Positions 51,579 through 61,094 of a DNA stretch of 64,000 nucleotides are shown here, in pieces. Position numbers and translations under genes: made by a program. The stretch comes from Burkholderiales bacterium (GTDB taxonomy: Bacteria; Pseudomonadota; Gammaproteobacteria; Burkholderiales; UBA6910): positions 1-64,000 of the forward strand of contig BPKG01000001.1 of assembly GCA_026005015.1 (NCBI GenBank), written 5' to 3'. The notes below the pieces were generated by a model. It was not told the origin of the DNA and did no database searches. It was given only the letters and a program-made list of their open reading frames with translations. How positions within the stretch are numbered: position 1 is the stretch's first letter; the number at the start of each line of letters is the position of its first letter.

Positions 51579-51585
51579 GAAAGCC

Positions 51586-52767
51586 TTACGCCGCCAGGCG
51601 GCCCGCCCGCCGCTGCAGGAGCAGCCACGCTGCCGCGGTGCCCGTCACCAGCAGGAAGGGCAGCGACCACAGGTTGAGGAGCTGCCATCCCTGGCCCGAG
51701 ATGAGGACCCCGGAAGAGAAGGAGGAGGTGGCCAGGGTGAGGAAGATCAGGAAGTCGTTCACGCCCTGGGTCTTGGCCCGCTCCGCGGGGGTGTGGGTCT
51801 CGGTGAGCAGGGTCGTGCCGCCGACGAACATGAAGTTCCAGCCCACGCCCAGCAGGAACAGGGCCAGCCAGAAGTTCATGACCGCGACCCCCGCCAGCGC
51901 CACGCCCACGCAGGCGAACATGAGGGCGACACCCGTGAGGATGACGGGCACGACGCCAAAGCGCTGGATCAGGGAGCCCGTCACGAAGGAAGGGGCGAAC
52001 ATGCCGATCACGTGCCATTCGATCACGAAGGCGGCGTCGTGGTACGGGTGGTGGTGCTGGGTCATGGCGATGGGGGTCGCCGTCATGAGCAGGTTCATAA
52101 CGCCGTAGCCCACCATGGCGGAGAGGACCGCCACCGCGAAGGCCGGCTGGGCCATGATGCGGGAAAGGGGCCGCCCCGCCACCCGCCGCTCGTGCTCCTC
52201 CATGGGTGGAATGTCGATGAAGCGCGAGAGGAGCATGGCGATGACCGAAAACCCCATGAGGGAGGCATACGATCCCATGTACGGGGCCCACAGGAGGTCC
52301 AGGGTGAGCTTGCTGCTTTCGGGGCCCAGGACGCCGCCGGCGATGCCGCCGGCCATCACCAGCGAGATGGCCTTGCTCTTGAAGTCCAGGCTGGCGGTCT
52401 CCGCCGCAGCGAAACGATAGTACTGGCCAAAGGCGTTGTAGACGCCCGCCACCAGGGTGCCGAGGCACAGGGTCCAGAAGCTTTCCAGGTGAACGGCCAG
52501 GGTGCACACGGCGGCGCCGGCGAAGCCGAAGGCGGCGCCGGTCATGAAACCGGCGCGCCGTCCCACCCGCTTCATCCAGAAGGACGCGGGCAGGGTGGAG
52601 AGGGCGCCGCCCACCACGTAGGCGGTGACGGGCAGCGTCGCCAGCGCCTTGACCTCCGCCAGGGCGAAGCCGGCGAGCCCGTTGATGGAAATCAGGATGA
52701 CGTTGTGGGTGAAGAGCAGGGCCTGGCAGGCGGCCAGCACCAGGACGTTTTTCCGGGCTCGGTCCAT
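51586..52767 (-). CDS. MFS transporter, sugar-efflux-like
   Basis: A 393-residue major facilitator with 12 predicted helices. The loop 2-3 motif WMKRVGRRAGFMTGA and the C-terminal half with a His-rich loop (TQHHHPYHDA) are visible. The His-rich loop hints at a metal or proton role. No neighbouring gene defines the substrate. It is divergent from the nitrilase gene. Confidence 0.85.
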   Translation of the reverse strand: MDRARKNVLVLAACQALLFTHNVILISINGLAGFALAEVKALATLPVTAYVVGGALSTLPASFWMKRVGRRAGFMTGAAFGFAGAAVCTLAVHLESFWTLCLGTLVAGVYNAFGQYYRFAAAETASLDFKSKAISLVMAGGIAGGVLGPESSKLTLDLLWAPYMGSYASLMGFSVIAMLLSRFIDIPPMEEHERRVAGRPLSRIMAQPAFAVAVLSAMVGYGVMNLLMTATPIAMTQHHHPYHDAAFVIEWHVIGMFAPSFVTGSLIQRFGVVPVILTGVALMFACVGVALAGVAVMNFWLALFLLGVGWNFMFVGGTTLLTETHTPAERAKTQGVNDFLIFLTLATSSFSSGVLISGQGWQLLNLWSLPFLLVTGTAAAWLLLQRRAGRLAA

Positions 52768-52777
52768 GATCGGGGGC

Positions 52778-52783
52778 TATAAT
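52778..52783 (+). promoter_or_regulatory. -10 box in the MFS/nitrilase gap
   Basis: TATAAT on the plus strand, 137 bases before the nitrilase start. No clear -35 box. Confidence 0.3.
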
Positions 52784-52919
52784 CTTTTTCGTTCCCGCTC
52801 CGGCCGCAGGCGCGCTGGAAGGACGGGGCCGGGGGCTCGCGCGGGAAAACGCGATCATAGCCCAGAACCCCCGGGCGAGACGCCGGAAAGTTTTTGCCGC
52901 GGCAGGAGGGCCAGCTTTC

Positions 52920-53897
52920 ATGACGCAGGAGCGGCACAAGCGCTTCGTGGCGGCGGTGGTGCAGGCCGCGCCGGTCGCCTTCGACCGGGCCCGCACCCTG
53001 GAGAAGGTGCGAGCCCTGGCGGCGGAAGCCGCGGACAAGGGAGCGAAGGTGGTCCTCTTTCCCGAGGCCTTCGTGTCCGCCTATCCCAAGGGCGCGGACT
53101 TCGGCGCCCGCATCGGCATGCGCTCGCCCGAAGGGCGGGAGGAATTCCTCCGCTACTTCGATTCCGCTGTGGACGTGCCGGGCCCCCACGTGGACTTCCT
53201 CGCCCAGGTGGCCGGCGAGAACCGCCTCTACCTGGTCATCGGCGTGATCGAGCGGGAGGTAGGCACCCTCTACTGCACCGTCCTGTTCTTTTCACCCGAA
53301 GGCCGGTATCTCGGCAAGCACCGCAAGCTCATGCCCACCGCCGTGGAGCGTCTGGTGTGGGGCTTCGGGGACGGCTCCACCCTACCGGTGTTCGACACTC
53401 CGTACGGGCGCCTCGGGGCCGTCATCTGCTGGGAAAACTACATGCCGCTCCTGCGCATGGCCATGTACGCGAAGAACATTCAGCTCTATTGCGCCCCCAC
53501 CGCCGACGGCCGCGCCACCTGGCTTCCCACCATGCAGCACGTGGCCTTGGAGGGCCGCTGCTTCGTGCTCTCGTGCAACCAGTTCACCCGCCGCCGGGAC
53601 TTCCCTGCCGACTTCACCCTGGTGCAGGGGAACGACCCCGACACGGTGATCAGCCGCGGCGGAAGCTGCATCGTGGGGCCCCTGGGGCAGGTGCTGGCGG
53701 GGCCCGACTTCGAAGGCGAGGCCATCCTGACCGCCGAGCTCGACTTGGGCGAGATCGTGCGCGGTAAGTACGACTTCGACGTGGTGGGTCACTACGCCCG
53801 GCCCGACGTCTTTCGTCTGTACGTCAACGAGCGGCCCCAGCCGCCGGTGGTGGTCGCGGACGGGACGCCGGAAGATCCGTTTCCCGGCAAGCCCTGA
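52920..53897 (+). CDS. nitrilase / carbon-nitrogen hydrolase
   Basis: A 325-residue member of nitrilase branch 1. The catalytic triad is visible: E49 in [14 protein letters not shown]136 in GKHRKLMPT and C170 in [11 protein letters not shown]. The length and the [10 protein letters not shown] motif fit true nitrilases (nitrile to acid) of the aliphatic or arylacetonitrile type. An AGGAGGG site precedes the ATG. It is followed by an orphan MerR gene on the same strand with its own promoter. Confidence 0.92.
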
Positions 53898-53929
53898 GGG
53901 GAAACAAGATTTATTAACATTTCCACCCT

Positions 53930-53960
53930 TGACCCTGTACTAACGTACACAGAATAAATT
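53930..53960 (+). promoter_or_regulatory. MerR-type operator/promoter 4
   Basis: TTGACC (53930-53935), a 19-bp spacer and ATAAAT (53955-53960). Dyad CTGTAC-TAAC-GTACAC fills 53936-53951, in the same register as the three operators of the mercury island. The MerR-family gene begins 25 bases downstream, so the regulator probably controls itself. Confidence 0.85.
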
Positions 53961-53985
53961 TGCCTCCGCCAAGCGAGGAGGGGGT

Positions 53986-54414
53986 ATGGAAGGGTGGACC
54001 ATCGGGGAAGTGGCCCGGCGGGCGGGCGTCGGCGTCGAGACGATCCGCTTCTACGAGCGGGAAGGGCTGATCGAGCAGCCTCCCCGGCCGAAGGGCTCGG
54101 GCTATCGCCGCTACCCGGAGGCCACCGTCCTCCGCATCCGCTTCATCCGCCAGGCGCGGGATCTGGGTTTTTCCCTCAAGGAAATCGGCGAGCTGATCCA
54201 CCTGCGGGGGCTCCCCGGTGCGGACGCCTCCCAGGTGCGCGCCTGGGTGGAGACCCGACTCGCCCAGGTGGACCAGCGCATCGACAAGCTCCAGCGGTTG
54301 AGGCGCGTCCTCGAAGCCCTGATCGCCACCTGCCCGATGGAAGGGCCCCTGTCCCAGTGCGCTATCATCCACGCCCTGGAGCAGGGCGTCATCGCGATCC
54401 AGACTGAAGAATAG
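53986..54414 (+). CDS. MerR family regulator, orphan, metal specificity uncertain
   Basis: A 142-residue MerR-family protein: HTH WTIGEVARRAGVGVETIRFYER, long dimerisation helix, and C116/C125 with C-X8-C spacing (CPMEGPLSQCAII) as in MerR, ZntR and PbrR. The first ligand of those sensors (a Cys near position 80) is absent; the region reads GLPGADASQVRAW. Either another ligand completes the site or it senses something else. No transporter or reductase gene follows, only a convergent gene. GGAGGGGGT precedes the ATG. Confidence 0.88.
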   Translation: MEGWTIGEVARRAGVGVETIRFYEREGLIEQPPRPKGSGYRRYPEATVLRIRFIRQARDLGFSLKEIGELIHLRGLPGADASQVRAWVETRLAQVDQRIDKLQRLRRVLEALIATCPMEGPLSQCAIIHALEQGVIAIQTEE

Positions 54415-54477
54415 GCTCGCGGTGACCGCTCGCGCCGCCCTGTCCGCGGAACCCTTTGCCCCGTTCCCCCTCCGGAA

Positions 54478-55173
54478 TCAGCCCCGCTTCTCGAACGGCC
54501 CGTCCCGATCCAGCACGATGTCGAAGACGCCCACCGGCTCACCCGTTTCGGCGCGGGCGTCGAAAGCGACAATGAGGCTCGCTCGAGCCTTCGGGTCGCG
54601 GATTGCGTTGAGGATGAAATCCCGCTCGTTTTCCGGCGCGCCCGCCACGTACATCTGGGTGACCAGGGGCGAGAAGTCCTCGCCGCCGATGGCGAAATGG
54701 ATGTGGGGCGCGCGGCCCGGGTAGGGCACCGGCTTGATGGTGCGGAAGCGGTAGGCGCCGTCCTCTCCCGTGACGAACTGGCCGTAGCCCTGGAAGTTGG
54801 GATCGATGGGCCGGTCGCTGCGGTCGTGGGGATGGTGGTAGCGGCCGAAGGCGTTGCACTGCCAGATCTCGATGCGGGCCTTGGGCACGGGCCGCCCGTT
54901 CCGGTCCAGGACGCGTCCCACCACGTGCACGATCTCCCCGCTGGCTAAACCCGGGCGGCCGGCGACGGTGACGAGGTCGTTGTCCTTCTCCAGCGGCAAA
55001 GTGAGGGGATAGAACGGCCCCCGGGTCTGGCGCGGCGTGGGGATAAGGGCCGCGAGCAGGGCGGGGGAGGCGAAGAGGGCCCCTGCCCCCAGAGCGCCCG
55101 CGAGGAAACGGCGCCGCTGGAAGCGGCCCGCGGCTAGAGGGAGGGGCGAGGGTTCAGTAGGCTTGCTTGACAC
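54478..55173 (-). CDS. exported intradiol ring-cleavage dioxygenase-like protein
   Basis: A 231-residue protein related to the protocatechuate 3,4-dioxygenase beta subunit. Iron ligands are conserved: Tyr in GRYHHPHDR, Tyr in VPYPGR, and the two His of PHIHFAI. The N-terminus has a twin-arginine signal (FQRRRFLAGALGAGALF), which catabolic intradiol enzymes lack, so it acts outside the cytoplasm. Its start overlaps the end of the protease-like gene by 20 bases, so the two are coupled. The natural substrate is unknown. Confidence 0.88.
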   Translation of the reverse strand: MSSKPTEPSPLPLAAGRFQRRRFLAGALGAGALFASPALLAALIPTPRQTRGPFYPLTLPLEKDNDLVTVAGRPGLASGEIVHVVGRVLDRNGRPVPKARIEIWQCNAFGRYHHPHDRSDRPIDPNFQGYGQFVTGEDGAYRFRTIKPVPYPGRAPHIHFAIGGEDFSPLVTQMYVAGAPENERDFILNAIRDPKARASLIVAFDARAETGEPVGVFDIVLDRDGPFEKRG

Positions 55174-56185
55174 GGAGGTACTCCTCCCGGTTCATGGAAG
55201 TCACGGAAATCTCCTTGAGCAGGTTGCCCTGGAGCACCTGCAGTTTCACCGCGGTGCCGGCGGGCCCTTTGGCCCACAGCTTGCGATAGAAGTCGGCCTG
55301 GTTCTCCAGCGGATTCCCGTCGAGCCCGGTCACGATGTCGTTGGGCCGGATGCCGGCCCGGTCGGCGGGACCTTCGGGCGCGACCCGCACCACGAACAGC
55401 CGCCCTTGGACCTCTTCGGTGGACAGCCCCAGCCAGGGCCTGGGGGGCCCGGTGCGCCGGCCGTCGTCCAGCAGGTCGGCCAGGATCGGTTTCAAGATGT
55501 CGACGGGCACGAACATGTTGCCGGGAAAGCGCACCCCCGGCTCGACGGCGTCGGGCACCAGCAGGGAGCCGATGCCCAATAGCCGCCCGTCCTGCCCGAT
55601 CAGGGCGGCCCCGCCCCAGTTGAGCACGGGGGGCACGGTGAAGATGGCGTTCTCCAGCAGGTATTCCCAGGCGCCAGTGAACTGGCGCCGGGAAACCACC
55701 ATTCCTACCGCTGTGGCGGAGGGTCCGCCGAAGCCCGCGATCAGCACCTCGTCCCGGACTTTAAGCTGGCTGGCGTCGCCTAACTCGATGGGGGGCACGC
55801 TCACGGGCGTGACGGTGCGCGCCAGCCCGAAACCCGTCGCGTGGTCGTAGGCGATCAGAGTGGCGGCGTGGGTCTTGCCGGTGGAATCGGTGACCTCGAT
55901 GCTGTCGGCTTCCAGCACCAGGTAGCCGATGGTGAGCACCAGGCCGTTCGGATCGATCACCACGCCGCTTCCTTCCCGACTATGCCCGAGGTAAGGCGCG
56001 GTGCGGGCGTCGGGTAGCGCCTTGGTTTTCACTCGCACCACCGCCGCCAGGGGATTGGGACCGTCGGCGCTGCCGTTGGCCTCGGCCGCTTCTGCGGCGG
56101 GAGAAAAGGAAAGGCTCGCCCAGAAAAGCGCCAGGACCGCGATTCCCAGCCCGGAGCGGCGAGCGGGGCGGCGGGGTGCGGTCAT
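55154..56185 (-). CDS. HtrA-like protein with PDZ domain, catalytic triad lost
   Basis: A 343-residue exported protein with the S1C trypsin-like fold followed by a PDZ domain (about 240-330, PWLGLSTEEVQGR, GPADRAGIRPNDIVTGLDG). All three catalytic positions are changed: His in TNXHV is Tyr88 (TIGYL), Asp in TDXA is Gly118 (TGFG), and Ser in GNSGG is Trp190 (LNWGG). It must be a non-proteolytic scaffold or binding protein. ATG 56185 has an AAAGGAGG site and gives a signal peptide ending near AEA. It is coupled to the dioxygenase-like gene. Confidence 0.88.
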   Translation of the reverse strand: MTAPRRPARRSGLGIAVLALFWASLSFSPAAEAAEANGSADGPNPLAAVVRVKTKALPDARTAPYLGHSREGSGVVIDPNGLVLTIGYLVLEADSIEVTDSTGKTHAATLIAYDHATGFGLARTVTPVSVPPIELGDASQLKVRDEVLIAGFGGPSATAVGMVVSRRQFTGAWEYLLENAIFTVPPVLNWGGAALIGQDGRLLGIGSLLVPDAVEPGVRFPGNMFVPVDILKPILADLLDDGRRTGPPRPWLGLSTEEVQGRLFVVRVAPEGPADRAGIRPNDIVTGLDGNPLENQADFYRKLWAKGPAGTAVKLQVLQGNLLKEISVTSMNREEYLRVKQAY

Positions 56186-56358
56186 GGGGATCCTCCTTTG
56201 CCCGGCGACGGGCAATCAATCCTTAGGCGGTTCGAACCGGGGAATAGTTCGGCAGTCGCAAGCCCGCGCCGGGGCGCGTAGGCAAGGGCAATTCGTTCTG
56301 GGAGAATAGCATTTTGAATGCAAGGGACTGCCGGCGGCAGCCGGTGGCGAGCACAACG

Positions 56359-57228
56359 ATGGGCGCGGACACGCGAAAACAGGATTTCGAGGCGAACAAG
56401 CGGGCCAAGCGCCTGCGCCGTCTGGTGGGGCAGGCGATCCACGACTACCGGATGATCGAAGCCGGCGATCACGTGATGGTCTGCCTCTCGGGAGGCAAGG
56501 ACAGCTACACCTTGCTGGATGTCCTGCTGGCCCTCCAGGAGAAGGCCCCGGTCCCCTTCCGGCTCACCGCGGTTAACCTGGACCAGAAGCAGCCCGGTTT
56601 CCCCGAGCACGTGCTGCCGGAATATCTGACGGCTCGCGGCGTTTCCTACCGCATCGAGCGCCAGGATACCTATAGCGTGGTCAAGCGGGTCATCCCCGAG
56701 GGCAGGACCCTGTGCTCCCTCTGCTCCCGGTTGCGCCGCGGCATCCTGTACCGGGTCGCCTCGGAGATCGGCGCCACCAAGATCGCCCTGGGCCACCACC
56801 GGGACGACATCCTGGAGACCCTCTTCCTCAACCTGTTCTACGGGGGCAAGCTCAAGGCTATGCCGCCCAAGCTCGCGTCCGACGACGGCCGGCACGTGGT
56901 GATCCGGCCTCTCGCCTACTGCCGCGAGGGGGACATCGCCGCGTACGCGCAAGAGCGGCGCTTCCCCATCATCCCCTGCAACCTGTGCGGCTCCCAGCCC
57001 AACCTGAAGCGGCAGGCGGTGAAGGAGATGCTGCGGGAGTGGGAAAAGCGCTTTCCGGGGCGGATCGAAAGCCTGTTCCGCAGCCTGCAGAACGTGGTGC
57101 CCTCCCACCTCGCCGACCCGCGGCTTTACGACTTCGCCAACTTGAGGCCGCCCGGCTCGCCCCAGCCCGAGGGCGACCGAGCCTTCGACCCCGAGGAATT
57201 TCCCCAGCCCGCGTTCGCGGAGGACTGA
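56359..57228 (+). CDS. ttcA: tRNA 2-thiocytidine biosynthesis protein TtcA
   Basis: ATP-dependent, [4Fe-4S] enzyme that thiolates C32 of tRNAs. It has 289 residues, with the PP-loop SGGKDS (44-49), cluster cysteines C119 and C122 (TLCSLCSRL), and a third in [13 protein letters not shown]. An upstream TTG start would add 15 residues; ATG 56359 matches family length. It is divergent from the protease-like gene. It depends on cysteine desulfurase sulfur, as made by the gene at 22692. Confidence 0.96.
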
Positions 57229-59744: not shown

Positions 59745-61094
59745 GTGAAGCGACAAGCATGGATACTGGCATGGACCGCGTTGGCCGCGGTCCTCTGGCT
59801 CCCGCCGACGGTGTCCGGGGCGCTGCCCCCAGGCCGCGCGGGGGAGATCCCGACCCTCGCCCCCATGCTGGCCGAAGTGACGCCTGGCGTGGTCAACATC
59901 GCGGTGATCTCCCGCGCCCAGGACTACGACAACCCGCTGCTGCGGGACCCGTTCTTCCGCCGCTTCTTCAACATTCCCGACCCCCGCCCCACTATCAGCG
60001 CCGGCTCCGGCGTCATCGTGGACGCGGCCCAGGGTTACGTGCTCACCAACCACCACGTCATCCAAAAGGCGGATCAGGTGGTAGTCACTACCCGGGATCG
60101 GCGCCGCTTCAACGCCCGGCTGGTGGGCAGCGACCCGGGCACGGACATCGCACTCCTCAAGATCGACGCGGACAACCTGAAGGCAATCCCTTTCGGCGAC
60201 TCCGACGCGCTGCGGGTCGGCGATTTCGTAGTGGCCATCGGCAACCCCTTCGGCCTGGGGCAGACGGCCACCTCCGGCATCGTGAGCGCGCTAGGCCGCA
60301 GCGGCATCAACGTGGAGGGCTACGAGGACTTCATTCAAACCGACGCGTCCATCAATCCCGGAAACTCCGGGGGCGCCCTAGTGAATCTCCGGGGCGAGCT
60401 GGTGGGCATCAACACGGCCATTATCGCCCCCTCCGGCGGCAACGTGGGCATCGGCTTCGCGGTGCCTTCCAACATGGCCCGCCGGGTCATGGACCAGCTC
60501 ATCCGCTTCGGCGAGGTGCGCCGGGGCTGGCTGGGGGTCACCGTGCAGGACTTGACGCCGGATCTCGCCAAGGCCCTGGGCGTCCCGCTGACCGAGGGCG
60601 CGGTGGTGGTGGAGGTGGCCGAAGGCTCCCCCGCGCAGAAGGCCGGGCTGAAACCCCGGGACATCATCACCTCGATCAACGGGCGGGCGATGCGCACTTC
60701 GAGCGAGGTGAGGAACGAGCTGGGGCTTACTCCCGTGGGCGAGCGGGTGGAGATCCGGGTGCTGCGAGAAGGCAGGCCCCTGACCCTCGCAGGCCGCATC
60801 GGGGAGGTGGGCGGACCGGGCAGCGGCGGAGTTGCCGTGCCCCAGCTCGCCGGCGCCCGCTTGGCGGACGTGGAGCGGGGCGGCCGGCCCCAGGGGGTGG
60901 GCGTGGTCTCGGTGGAGCGGGATTCGGAGGCCTGGCGGCTGGGGCTGCGCCGGGGCGACGTGATCATCGCCGTGAATCAGCGGCGGGTTGCGTCGGTAGC
61001 GGAGCTGCGGGAAGCCCTCAAGGACGCGGACCGCACCCTGGCCCTGACCATCGTGCGGGGGGACGCGGTGCTCAACCTGATCGCGCGGCGCTGA
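59745..61094 (+). CDS. periplasmic Do family serine protease (DegQ/MucD type)
   Basis: A 449-residue periplasmic quality-control protease with the complete triad H104 (LTNHHVI), D134 (GTDIALL) and S208 (INPGNSGGAL), followed by two PDZ domains (about 250-335 and 360-445). GTG start with an ACGAGGAGG site; the signal peptide ends near VSGA. The contrast with the triad-less homologue at 55154 is instructive. Confidence 0.95.
   Translation: MKRQAWILAWTALAAVLWLPPTVSGALPPGRAGEIPTLAPMLAEVTPGVVNIAVISRAQDYDNPLLRDPFFRRFFNIPDPRPTISAGSGVIVDAAQGYVLTNHHVIQKADQVVVTTRDRRRFNARLVGSDPGTDIALLKIDADNLKAIPFGDSDALRVGDFVVAIGNPFGLGQTATSGIVSALGRSGINVEGYEDFIQTDASINPGNSGGALVNLRGELVGINTAIIAPSGGNVGIGFAVPSNMARRVMDQLIRFGEVRRGWLGVTVQDLTPDLAKALGVPLTEGAVVVEVAEGSPAQKAGLKPRDIITSINGRAMRTSSEVRNELGLTPVGERVEIRVLREGRPLTLAGRIGEVGGPGSGGVAVPQLAGARLADVERGGRPQGVGVVSVERDSEAWRLGLRRGDVIIAVNQRRVASVAELREALKDADRTLALTIVRGDAVLNLIARR

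What the first reader, a model, noticed from the sequence alone, without database searches (positions are those of the whole stretch)
54478..56185. Triad-less HtrA-like protein coupled to an exported intradiol-dioxygenase-like protein
All three catalytic residues of the protease fold are replaced (Tyr88, Gly118, Trp190) yet the fold and the PDZ domain are kept, and the gene overlaps by 20 bases with a Tat-exported iron dioxygenase-like protein. Simultaneous loss of the triad with an intact frame suggests selection for a new, non-proteolytic role, perhaps as a PDZ scaffold for the dioxygenase.
Basis: partly seen in the sequence, partly recalled or inferred. Interest (0 to 1): 0.7.

Follow-up and report, generated by a model that had tools for sequence, protein, structure and literature searches.

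The report
Widespread catalytically dead HtrA-like protein
The protein looks like a well-known bacterial protein-cutting enzyme, but its whole family lost the cutting machinery long ago and is still carefully kept in many proteobacteria, so it probably binds proteins rather than cuts them; its neighbour, an exported iron dioxygenase, is only an occasional companion.

Summary
The two genes are real and correctly placed: an HtrA-like gene (55154-56185, minus strand, 343 aa) and an exported intradiol-dioxygenase-like gene (54478-55173), overlapping by 20 nt, each with a good ribosome-binding site. The loss is ancestral, not local. In 154 family members from Beta- and Alphaproteobacteria and one SAR324 genome, the His column is always Tyr and the Asp column always Gly; the Ser column varies (Ser 75, Gly 51, Ala 21, Gln 7). 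The family forms its own branch against the genome's four intact HtrAs, keeps a confident HtrA fold plus one PDZ domain, and close pairs show dN/dS of about 0.02-0.18. A conserved non-proteolytic role is well supported.

The dioxygenase link is not general. It occurs in 5 of 118 HtrA-like loci with at least 0.7 kb of flank on each side, with changing gene order, and the linked dioxygenases do not form a clade. Most HtrA-like genes stand alone. Verdict: a broad, apparently undescribed pseudo-HtrA family, comparable in kind to MamO and PflC. Its most likely role is PDZ-mediated periplasmic protein binding; that function is inferred, not shown.

The parts
55154..56185 (-). HtrA-like pseudoprotease gene, 343 aa, predicted N-terminal export signal (cleavage region SPAAEA-AEA by eye), Trypsin_2 domain (aa 72-205) and one PDZ (aa 251-328)
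56192..56199 (-). Shine-Dalgarno-like AAAGGAGG, 6 nt before the ATG at 56185
   Evidence: sequence read directly
55922..55924 (-). Tyr88 codon, in place of catalytic His; 154/154 Tyr in the family
55832..55834 (-). Gly118 codon, in place of catalytic Asp; 154/154 Gly in the family
55613..55615 (-). Gly191 codon, the true position of the catalytic Ser (Ser/Gly/Ala/Gln in the family); Trp190 at 55616-55618 corresponds to the preceding Asn of NPGNSGG
54478..55173 (-). Exported intradiol-dioxygenase-like gene, GTG start, 231 aa, RRRFL Tat-like signal, iron ligands Tyr112, Tyr151, His157, His159 and Arg154 all present
55154..55173 (-). 20-nt overlap of the two reading frames
55181..55188 (-). Shine-Dalgarno-like GGGAGGAG inside the HtrA-like gene, 7 nt before the dioxygenase GTG; suggests translational coupling
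   Evidence: sequence read directly

Best explanation
The HtrA-like gene belongs to a distinct, ancient family of catalytically dead HtrA relatives (pseudoproteases) of Pseudomonadota. The protein is exported to the periplasm and keeps the trypsin-like double barrel and one PDZ domain, but cannot cut by the HtrA mechanism: His, Asp and the oxyanion-loop glycine are replaced across the family. Inferred mechanism: it works by binding, its PDZ domain and remodelled former active-site face holding exposed peptides or protein ends as a chaperone, adaptor or scaffold. In this lineage it is probably co-transcribed and translationally coupled with a Tat-exported intradiol dioxygenase that keeps its iron ligands; that pairing is a local, recurrent operon arrangement, not the reason the triad was lost. 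Shown: family-wide residue loss, predicted fold, selection on close pairs, limited linkage. Inferred: export, absence of proteolysis in practice, and the binding role.
For: Tyr88 and Gly118 in 154/154 family members, Gly192 and the WE of the GxWEY motif (W173, E174) 154/154, Ser column variable; profile alignment to the genome's four intact HtrAs, which have H, D and S in the same columns. The family is one side of a 100-support branch against those four. Predicted fold confident and HtrA-like. PDZ found in 52/52 tested members. Found in 93 of 399 genomes of the order and 35 of 398 of the phylum sample. The 40 closest gene pairs have dN/dS 0.02-0.18. Neighbours differ by lineage, the gene mostly standing alone. 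Precedents: MamO (PMC4794232), PflC (PMC12222027); protease-dead HtrAs still prevent aggregation (PMC11642142).
Against: No experiment. The tree outgroup is only four paralogues of one genome, on a quick tree. The gene is absent from many genomes including same-genus G001 (98% complete), so it is dispensable. No conserved neighbour points to a client. dN/dS for the window gene itself could not be measured (nearest relative 64% identical), and the simple method gives untrustworthy values for distant pairs. I had no model coordinates, so the geometry of the former active site was not inspected.
Confidence: 0.55

Rival explanations
1. Dedicated scaffold: the HtrA-like protein exists to hold or localise the exported dioxygenase through its PDZ domain.
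For: 20-nt overlap and internal ribosome-binding site; same-strand linkage in 5 loci plus a sixth at 1.1 kb; genus-level co-occurrence: 12 of 13 dioxygenase-bearing genera have the family versus 36 of 159 overall.
Against: Linked in only 5/118 loci with flank; gene order differs; linked dioxygenases not monophyletic; no shared hydrophobic C-terminus on the dioxygenase; many HtrA-like genomes have no such dioxygenase; co-occurrence is confounded by phylogeny and lifestyle.
Confidence: 0.08
2. Modulator of active HtrAs: the dead protein mixes with or regulates the canonical DegQ/DegP-type proteases in the same periplasm.
For: The genome encodes four intact HtrAs, one 3.6 kb away (59745-61094); MamO promotes MamE-dependent proteolysis in magnetotactic bacteria (PMC4794232).
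Against: No conserved linkage to any canonical HtrA gene was seen; canonical HtrAs are so common that co-occurrence is uninformative; no interface tested.
Confidence: 0.2
3. New or residual catalysis: the invariant Tyr88, Glu174, Tyr175, Arg167, Asn223 and similar residues form a different active or metal site.
For: 39 columns are invariant in 52 diverse members, many not shared with canonical HtrAs; the region aligned to the canonical active-site loops is rebuilt with fixed residues rather than degraded.
Against: No known catalytic arrangement recognised; invariant polar residues may be structural; geometry not inspected.
Confidence: 0.12
4. Recent local decay: a protease gene on its way to becoming a pseudogene in this genome.
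For: Same-genus G001 lacks the gene and its neighbours.
Against: All relatives share the His and Asp substitutions; open frame; low dN/dS in close pairs.
Confidence: 0.01

Closest known systems
HtrA/DegP/DegQ/DegS (S1C, Do family) periplasmic proteases
   Same: Trypsin-like domain followed by PDZ, predicted periplasmic export, same overall fold (VIA Z about 25)
   Different: His, Asp and oxyanion-loop motif replaced in every member; Ser not conserved; one PDZ; loops around the former active site carry family-specific invariant motifs (TIGY, TGFG, GxWEY); far below the NCBIfam Do cut-off (84.9 vs 416 bits)
MamO of magnetotactic bacteria
   Same: HtrA-derived protein whose protease domain lost catalysis and took a binding role (PMC4794232)
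   Different: MamO has a C-terminal TauE-type transporter domain and keeps His and Asp with Thr for Ser; our protein has none of these, and scores 16.4 bits against a MamO cut-off of 800
PflC of the Campylobacter flagellar motor
   Same: HtrA fold without the catalytic triad, periplasmic, used as a structural scaffold (PMC12222027)
   Different: PflC has two PDZ-like domains and forms the medial disk of the motor; our family has one PDZ and is in Alpha- and Betaproteobacteria; no flagellar context was recognised in the neighbourhoods, though not every neighbour was annotated
Protocatechuate 3,4-dioxygenase beta subunit (PcaH), for the neighbour gene
   Same: All four iron ligands and the catalytic Arg conserved; best solved relative 2pcd chain M
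   Different: Tat-like signal peptide, below the PcaH equivalog cut-off (154 vs 296 bits), and no alpha subunit or other PF00775 gene in the genome

Membership tests
HtrA (S1C, Do) protease | Trypsin-like fold plus PDZ domain | tested here: met
HtrA (S1C, Do) protease | His-Asp-Ser triad | tested here: not met
   Tyr88, Gly118, Gly191; His and Asp absent in 154/154 family members
HtrA (S1C, Do) protease | Oxyanion-loop motif NPGNSGG | tested here: not met
   VLNWGGAA here; the position of the canonical Gly holds Glu, Asn, Gln, Asp, Ala and others in the family
HtrA (S1C, Do) protease | Score above NCBIfam TIGR02037 cut-off | tested here: not met
   84.9 vs 416.2 bits
MamO | Score above NCBIfam NF040961 cut-off | tested here: not met
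   16.4 vs 800 bits
MamO | C-terminal TauE-type transporter domain | tested here: not met
   Protein ends about 15 residues after the PDZ; no other Pfam domain above cut-off
PflC | Loss of the HtrA triad | tested here: met
PflC | Two PDZ-like domains | tested here: not met
   One PDZ stretch in the protein; secondary structure of the model consistent with one
PflC | Role as flagellar medial-disk scaffold | not testable with these tools
   needs imaging or pull-down
Pseudoprotease (functional class) | Absence of proteolytic activity | not testable with these tools
   inferred from residues only
Intradiol dioxygenase (PF00775), neighbour gene | Two Tyr and two His iron ligands | tested here: met
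   Y112, Y151, H157, H159 conserved in 41/41 aligned sequences; alignment to 2pcd
Protocatechuate 3,4-dioxygenase beta subunit, neighbour gene | Score above NCBIfam TIGR02422 cut-off and presence of an alpha subunit | tested here: not met
   154.2 vs 296.4 bits; only one PF00775 gene found in the genome, 95% complete

The most novel reading that the evidence does not exclude
A phylum-wide pseudo-HtrA family in which the former active site has been rebuilt into a fixed, family-specific site (TIGY, TGFG, GxWEY and neighbouring motifs) with its own ligand or client, giving Alpha- and Betaproteobacteria an unrecognised periplasmic binding or quality-control factor currently annotated as an S1C protease.
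Probability: 0.3. Interest if true: 0.65.

Novelty: new variant of a known kind. Interest (0 to 1): 0.45.

Why it matters
Members of this family are named 'S1C family serine protease' in public records, although none of the 154 examined has the catalytic His or Asp. Recognising the family corrects annotation in many soil and plant-associated bacteria and offers a third, broader case, besides MamO and PflC, of the HtrA scaffold being kept for something other than proteolysis. Because relatives occur in genetically tractable rhizobia and Azospirillum, the function is directly testable.

Tried and rejected
Recent pseudogene: rejected, the substitutions are family-wide. Conserved operon partner: a search for a common neighbour across about 130 loci found only lineage-specific contexts (GreB-like and exonuclease-like genes by eye in one large clade, TtcA in the window's family, others elsewhere). 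My simple ORF caller is rough in high-GC DNA, so fine neighbour details are uncertain. dN/dS over distant pairs gave inflated values and was discarded; only close pairs are used. In-frame stops flagged in two dioxygenase relatives (G025, G614): no stop lies within the tblastn-aligned region. Promoter scan found nothing. Literature searches for bacterial trypsin-like pseudoproteases with PDZ, for Tat-exported intradiol dioxygenases and for the Streptomyces secreted dioxygenase returned no papers in the held library, which is not proof of absence. Complex prediction of the two proteins was not available.

Full report
Observation. The HtrA-like ORF runs from an ATG at 56185 to a stop ending at 55154 on the minus strand (343 aa), preceded by AAAGGAGG six bases upstream. 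The dioxygenase ORF runs from a GTG at 55173 to 54478 (231 aa); GGGAGGAG lies seven bases upstream of the GTG, inside the first gene. The frames overlap by 20 nt. The first protein has a hydrophobic N-terminus with a plausible signal-peptidase site, the second an RRRFL twin-arginine-like signal (by eye; no signal-peptide program was available). Divergent to the pair lies a TtcA-like gene (56314-57228), convergent to it a MerR-type regulator (53986-54414).

Domains and fold. Pfam gives Trypsin_2 at residues 72-205 and one PDZ at 251-328, both above the curated cut-offs. AlphaFold2 with 52 natural sequences gives mean pLDDT 86.7, with only the signal region and the last four residues weak. The nearest solved structures are DegP, plant Deg1, DegQ and DegS (Foldseek E about 1e-21; VIA Z about 25; whole-chain rmsd is large, probably because the PDZ sits differently).

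Triad. Tyr88 and Gly118 align with the catalytic His and Asp in single-sequence, multiple and profile alignments. For the serine, the profile-profile alignment pairs VLNWGGAAL with NPGNSGGAL, so the Ser position is Gly191 and Trp190 is the Asn before it. The many relatives with xHSGAAL support this register.

Is it local decay? No. 105 homologues in the first alignment, 125 family rows after the order-wide search and 154 after a phylum-wide profile search were compared; wherever the region is covered, position 88 is Tyr and position 118 is Gly. The Ser column holds Ser 75, Gly 51, Ala 21, Gln 7, so the serine is the one triad residue that some members keep. The Gly of the canonical oxyanion loop is gone in the 125 rows checked. 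Family-specific invariant residues include L66-G67, R70, T85-I-G-Y88, E92, R167, F169, G171-x-W173-E174-Y175, P185, S207-L208, N223, P250-W251-x-G253, W304. The four other HtrA genes of this genome have intact H, D and S and form the other side of a fully supported branch (quick method, long branches, only four outgroup rows). The 40 closest gene pairs (dS under 0.5) have dN/dS 0.02-0.18, which means purifying selection; the window gene itself is too far from its nearest relative (64%) for this. The family is found in 93 of 399 genomes sampled in the order and 35 of 398 in the phylum sample, on rhizobial and Azospirillum megaplasmids, and in one 1.2-Mb genome with 31% GC around the gene (locus L186). 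Several genomes carry two or three members.

The dioxygenase. The neighbour keeps Tyr112, Tyr151, His157, His159 and Arg154, invariant in 41 aligned sequences and corresponding to the ligands and catalytic Arg of protocatechuate 3,4-dioxygenase beta chain (alignment to 2pcd; residue roles from general knowledge). It is below the cut-off for a true PcaH and is the only PF00775 gene found in the genome, so it is an exported relative without an alpha subunit, probably active, substrate unknown.

The pair. In loci with at least 0.7 kb on both sides, 5 of 118 have the dioxygenase next to or near the HtrA-like gene; another linked locus (L011/L121, genome G013) and one with the dioxygenase 1.1 kb away behind an opposite-strand gene (G469) are seen when all loci are read. 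The linked set is thus the window, G003, G013, L037, L038 and, loosely, G469. The order varies: dioxygenase downstream and overlapping in the window, upstream in the same-family G003 (where it sits between TtcA and the HtrA-like gene), downstream with a gap in G013 and L037/L038. All linked HtrA-like genes fall in one 20-member branch that also holds 14 unlinked members (support of that branch 88). The linked dioxygenases are not a clade (0% of bootstrap trees; at least three changes), and their unlinked relatives have other neighbours. In the same-genus genome G001 the AzlCD genes lie directly beside TtcA and the whole block including the pair is missing there. By genus, 12 of 13 genera with a close dioxygenase also have the HtrA-like family, against 36 of 159 overall (hypergeometric 4e-8), but this ignores shared ancestry and lifestyle, and the genes are mostly unlinked. 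The dioxygenase C-termini do not share a hydrophobic PDZ-type ending. Tat substrates are normally folded before export (general knowledge), which weakens the case for a dedicated periplasmic folding helper.

Explanation. The best-supported reading is an ancient pseudoprotease family that acts by binding. The predicted fold, PDZ domain, family-wide loss of catalytic residues and conservation are shown; the binding, chaperone or adaptor role is inferred, with precedent in MamO (PMC4794232), PflC (PMC12222027) and the aggregation-suppressing activity of protease-dead HtrAs (reviewed in PMC11642142). The dioxygenase pairing is a local arrangement. A modulator of canonical HtrAs, or a new active site built on the old one, remain possible.

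Known or new. No NCBIfam or Pfam model names this family; all NCBIfam hits of the window protein are far below the curated cut-offs, and public records call members 'S1C family serine protease'. The kind (dead HtrA) is known; this family differs from MamO and PflC in architecture and residues. My literature searches were limited to open papers, so an earlier description cannot be excluded.

Noticed in passing
window 59745-61094 (+): A canonical DegQ-like protease with intact triad (H104, D134, S208) and two PDZ domains lies 3.6 kb from the pseudo-HtrA.
   Followed up: yes
window 51579-56185: The stretch holding an MFS transporter, a nitrilase-like gene, a MerR regulator, the dioxygenase and the pseudo-HtrA is absent in same-genus genome G001, where AzlC-AzlD lie directly beside TtcA (L215).
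   Followed up: partly
L186: A 1.2-Mb genome with 31% GC around the gene keeps a full-length member of the family, suggesting importance in a streamlined lineage (organism not named).
   Followed up: no
L118, L119, L122, L158-L162, L165, L173: The exported dioxygenase, where unlinked to the pseudo-HtrA, is often followed by a small 70-80 aa gene with a LKxEHxDLDDxI motif (DUF465-like by eye) and small lipoprotein-like genes.
   Followed up: no
HtrA-like C-termini, e.g. window 55157-55186: The C-terminal tail has a nearly fixed length after a conserved DR-x-x-[YF] motif and often ends in His, Tyr or Leu (38, 31 and 17 of 154), which might be a PDZ ligand for a neighbouring subunit.
   Followed up: partly
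L043, L049, L067, L073, L107, L087: Metagenome bins titled Bordetella parapertussis or Chitinophaga pinensis carry family members that group with uncultured betaproteobacteria; the record titles are probably misnamed.
   Followed up: no
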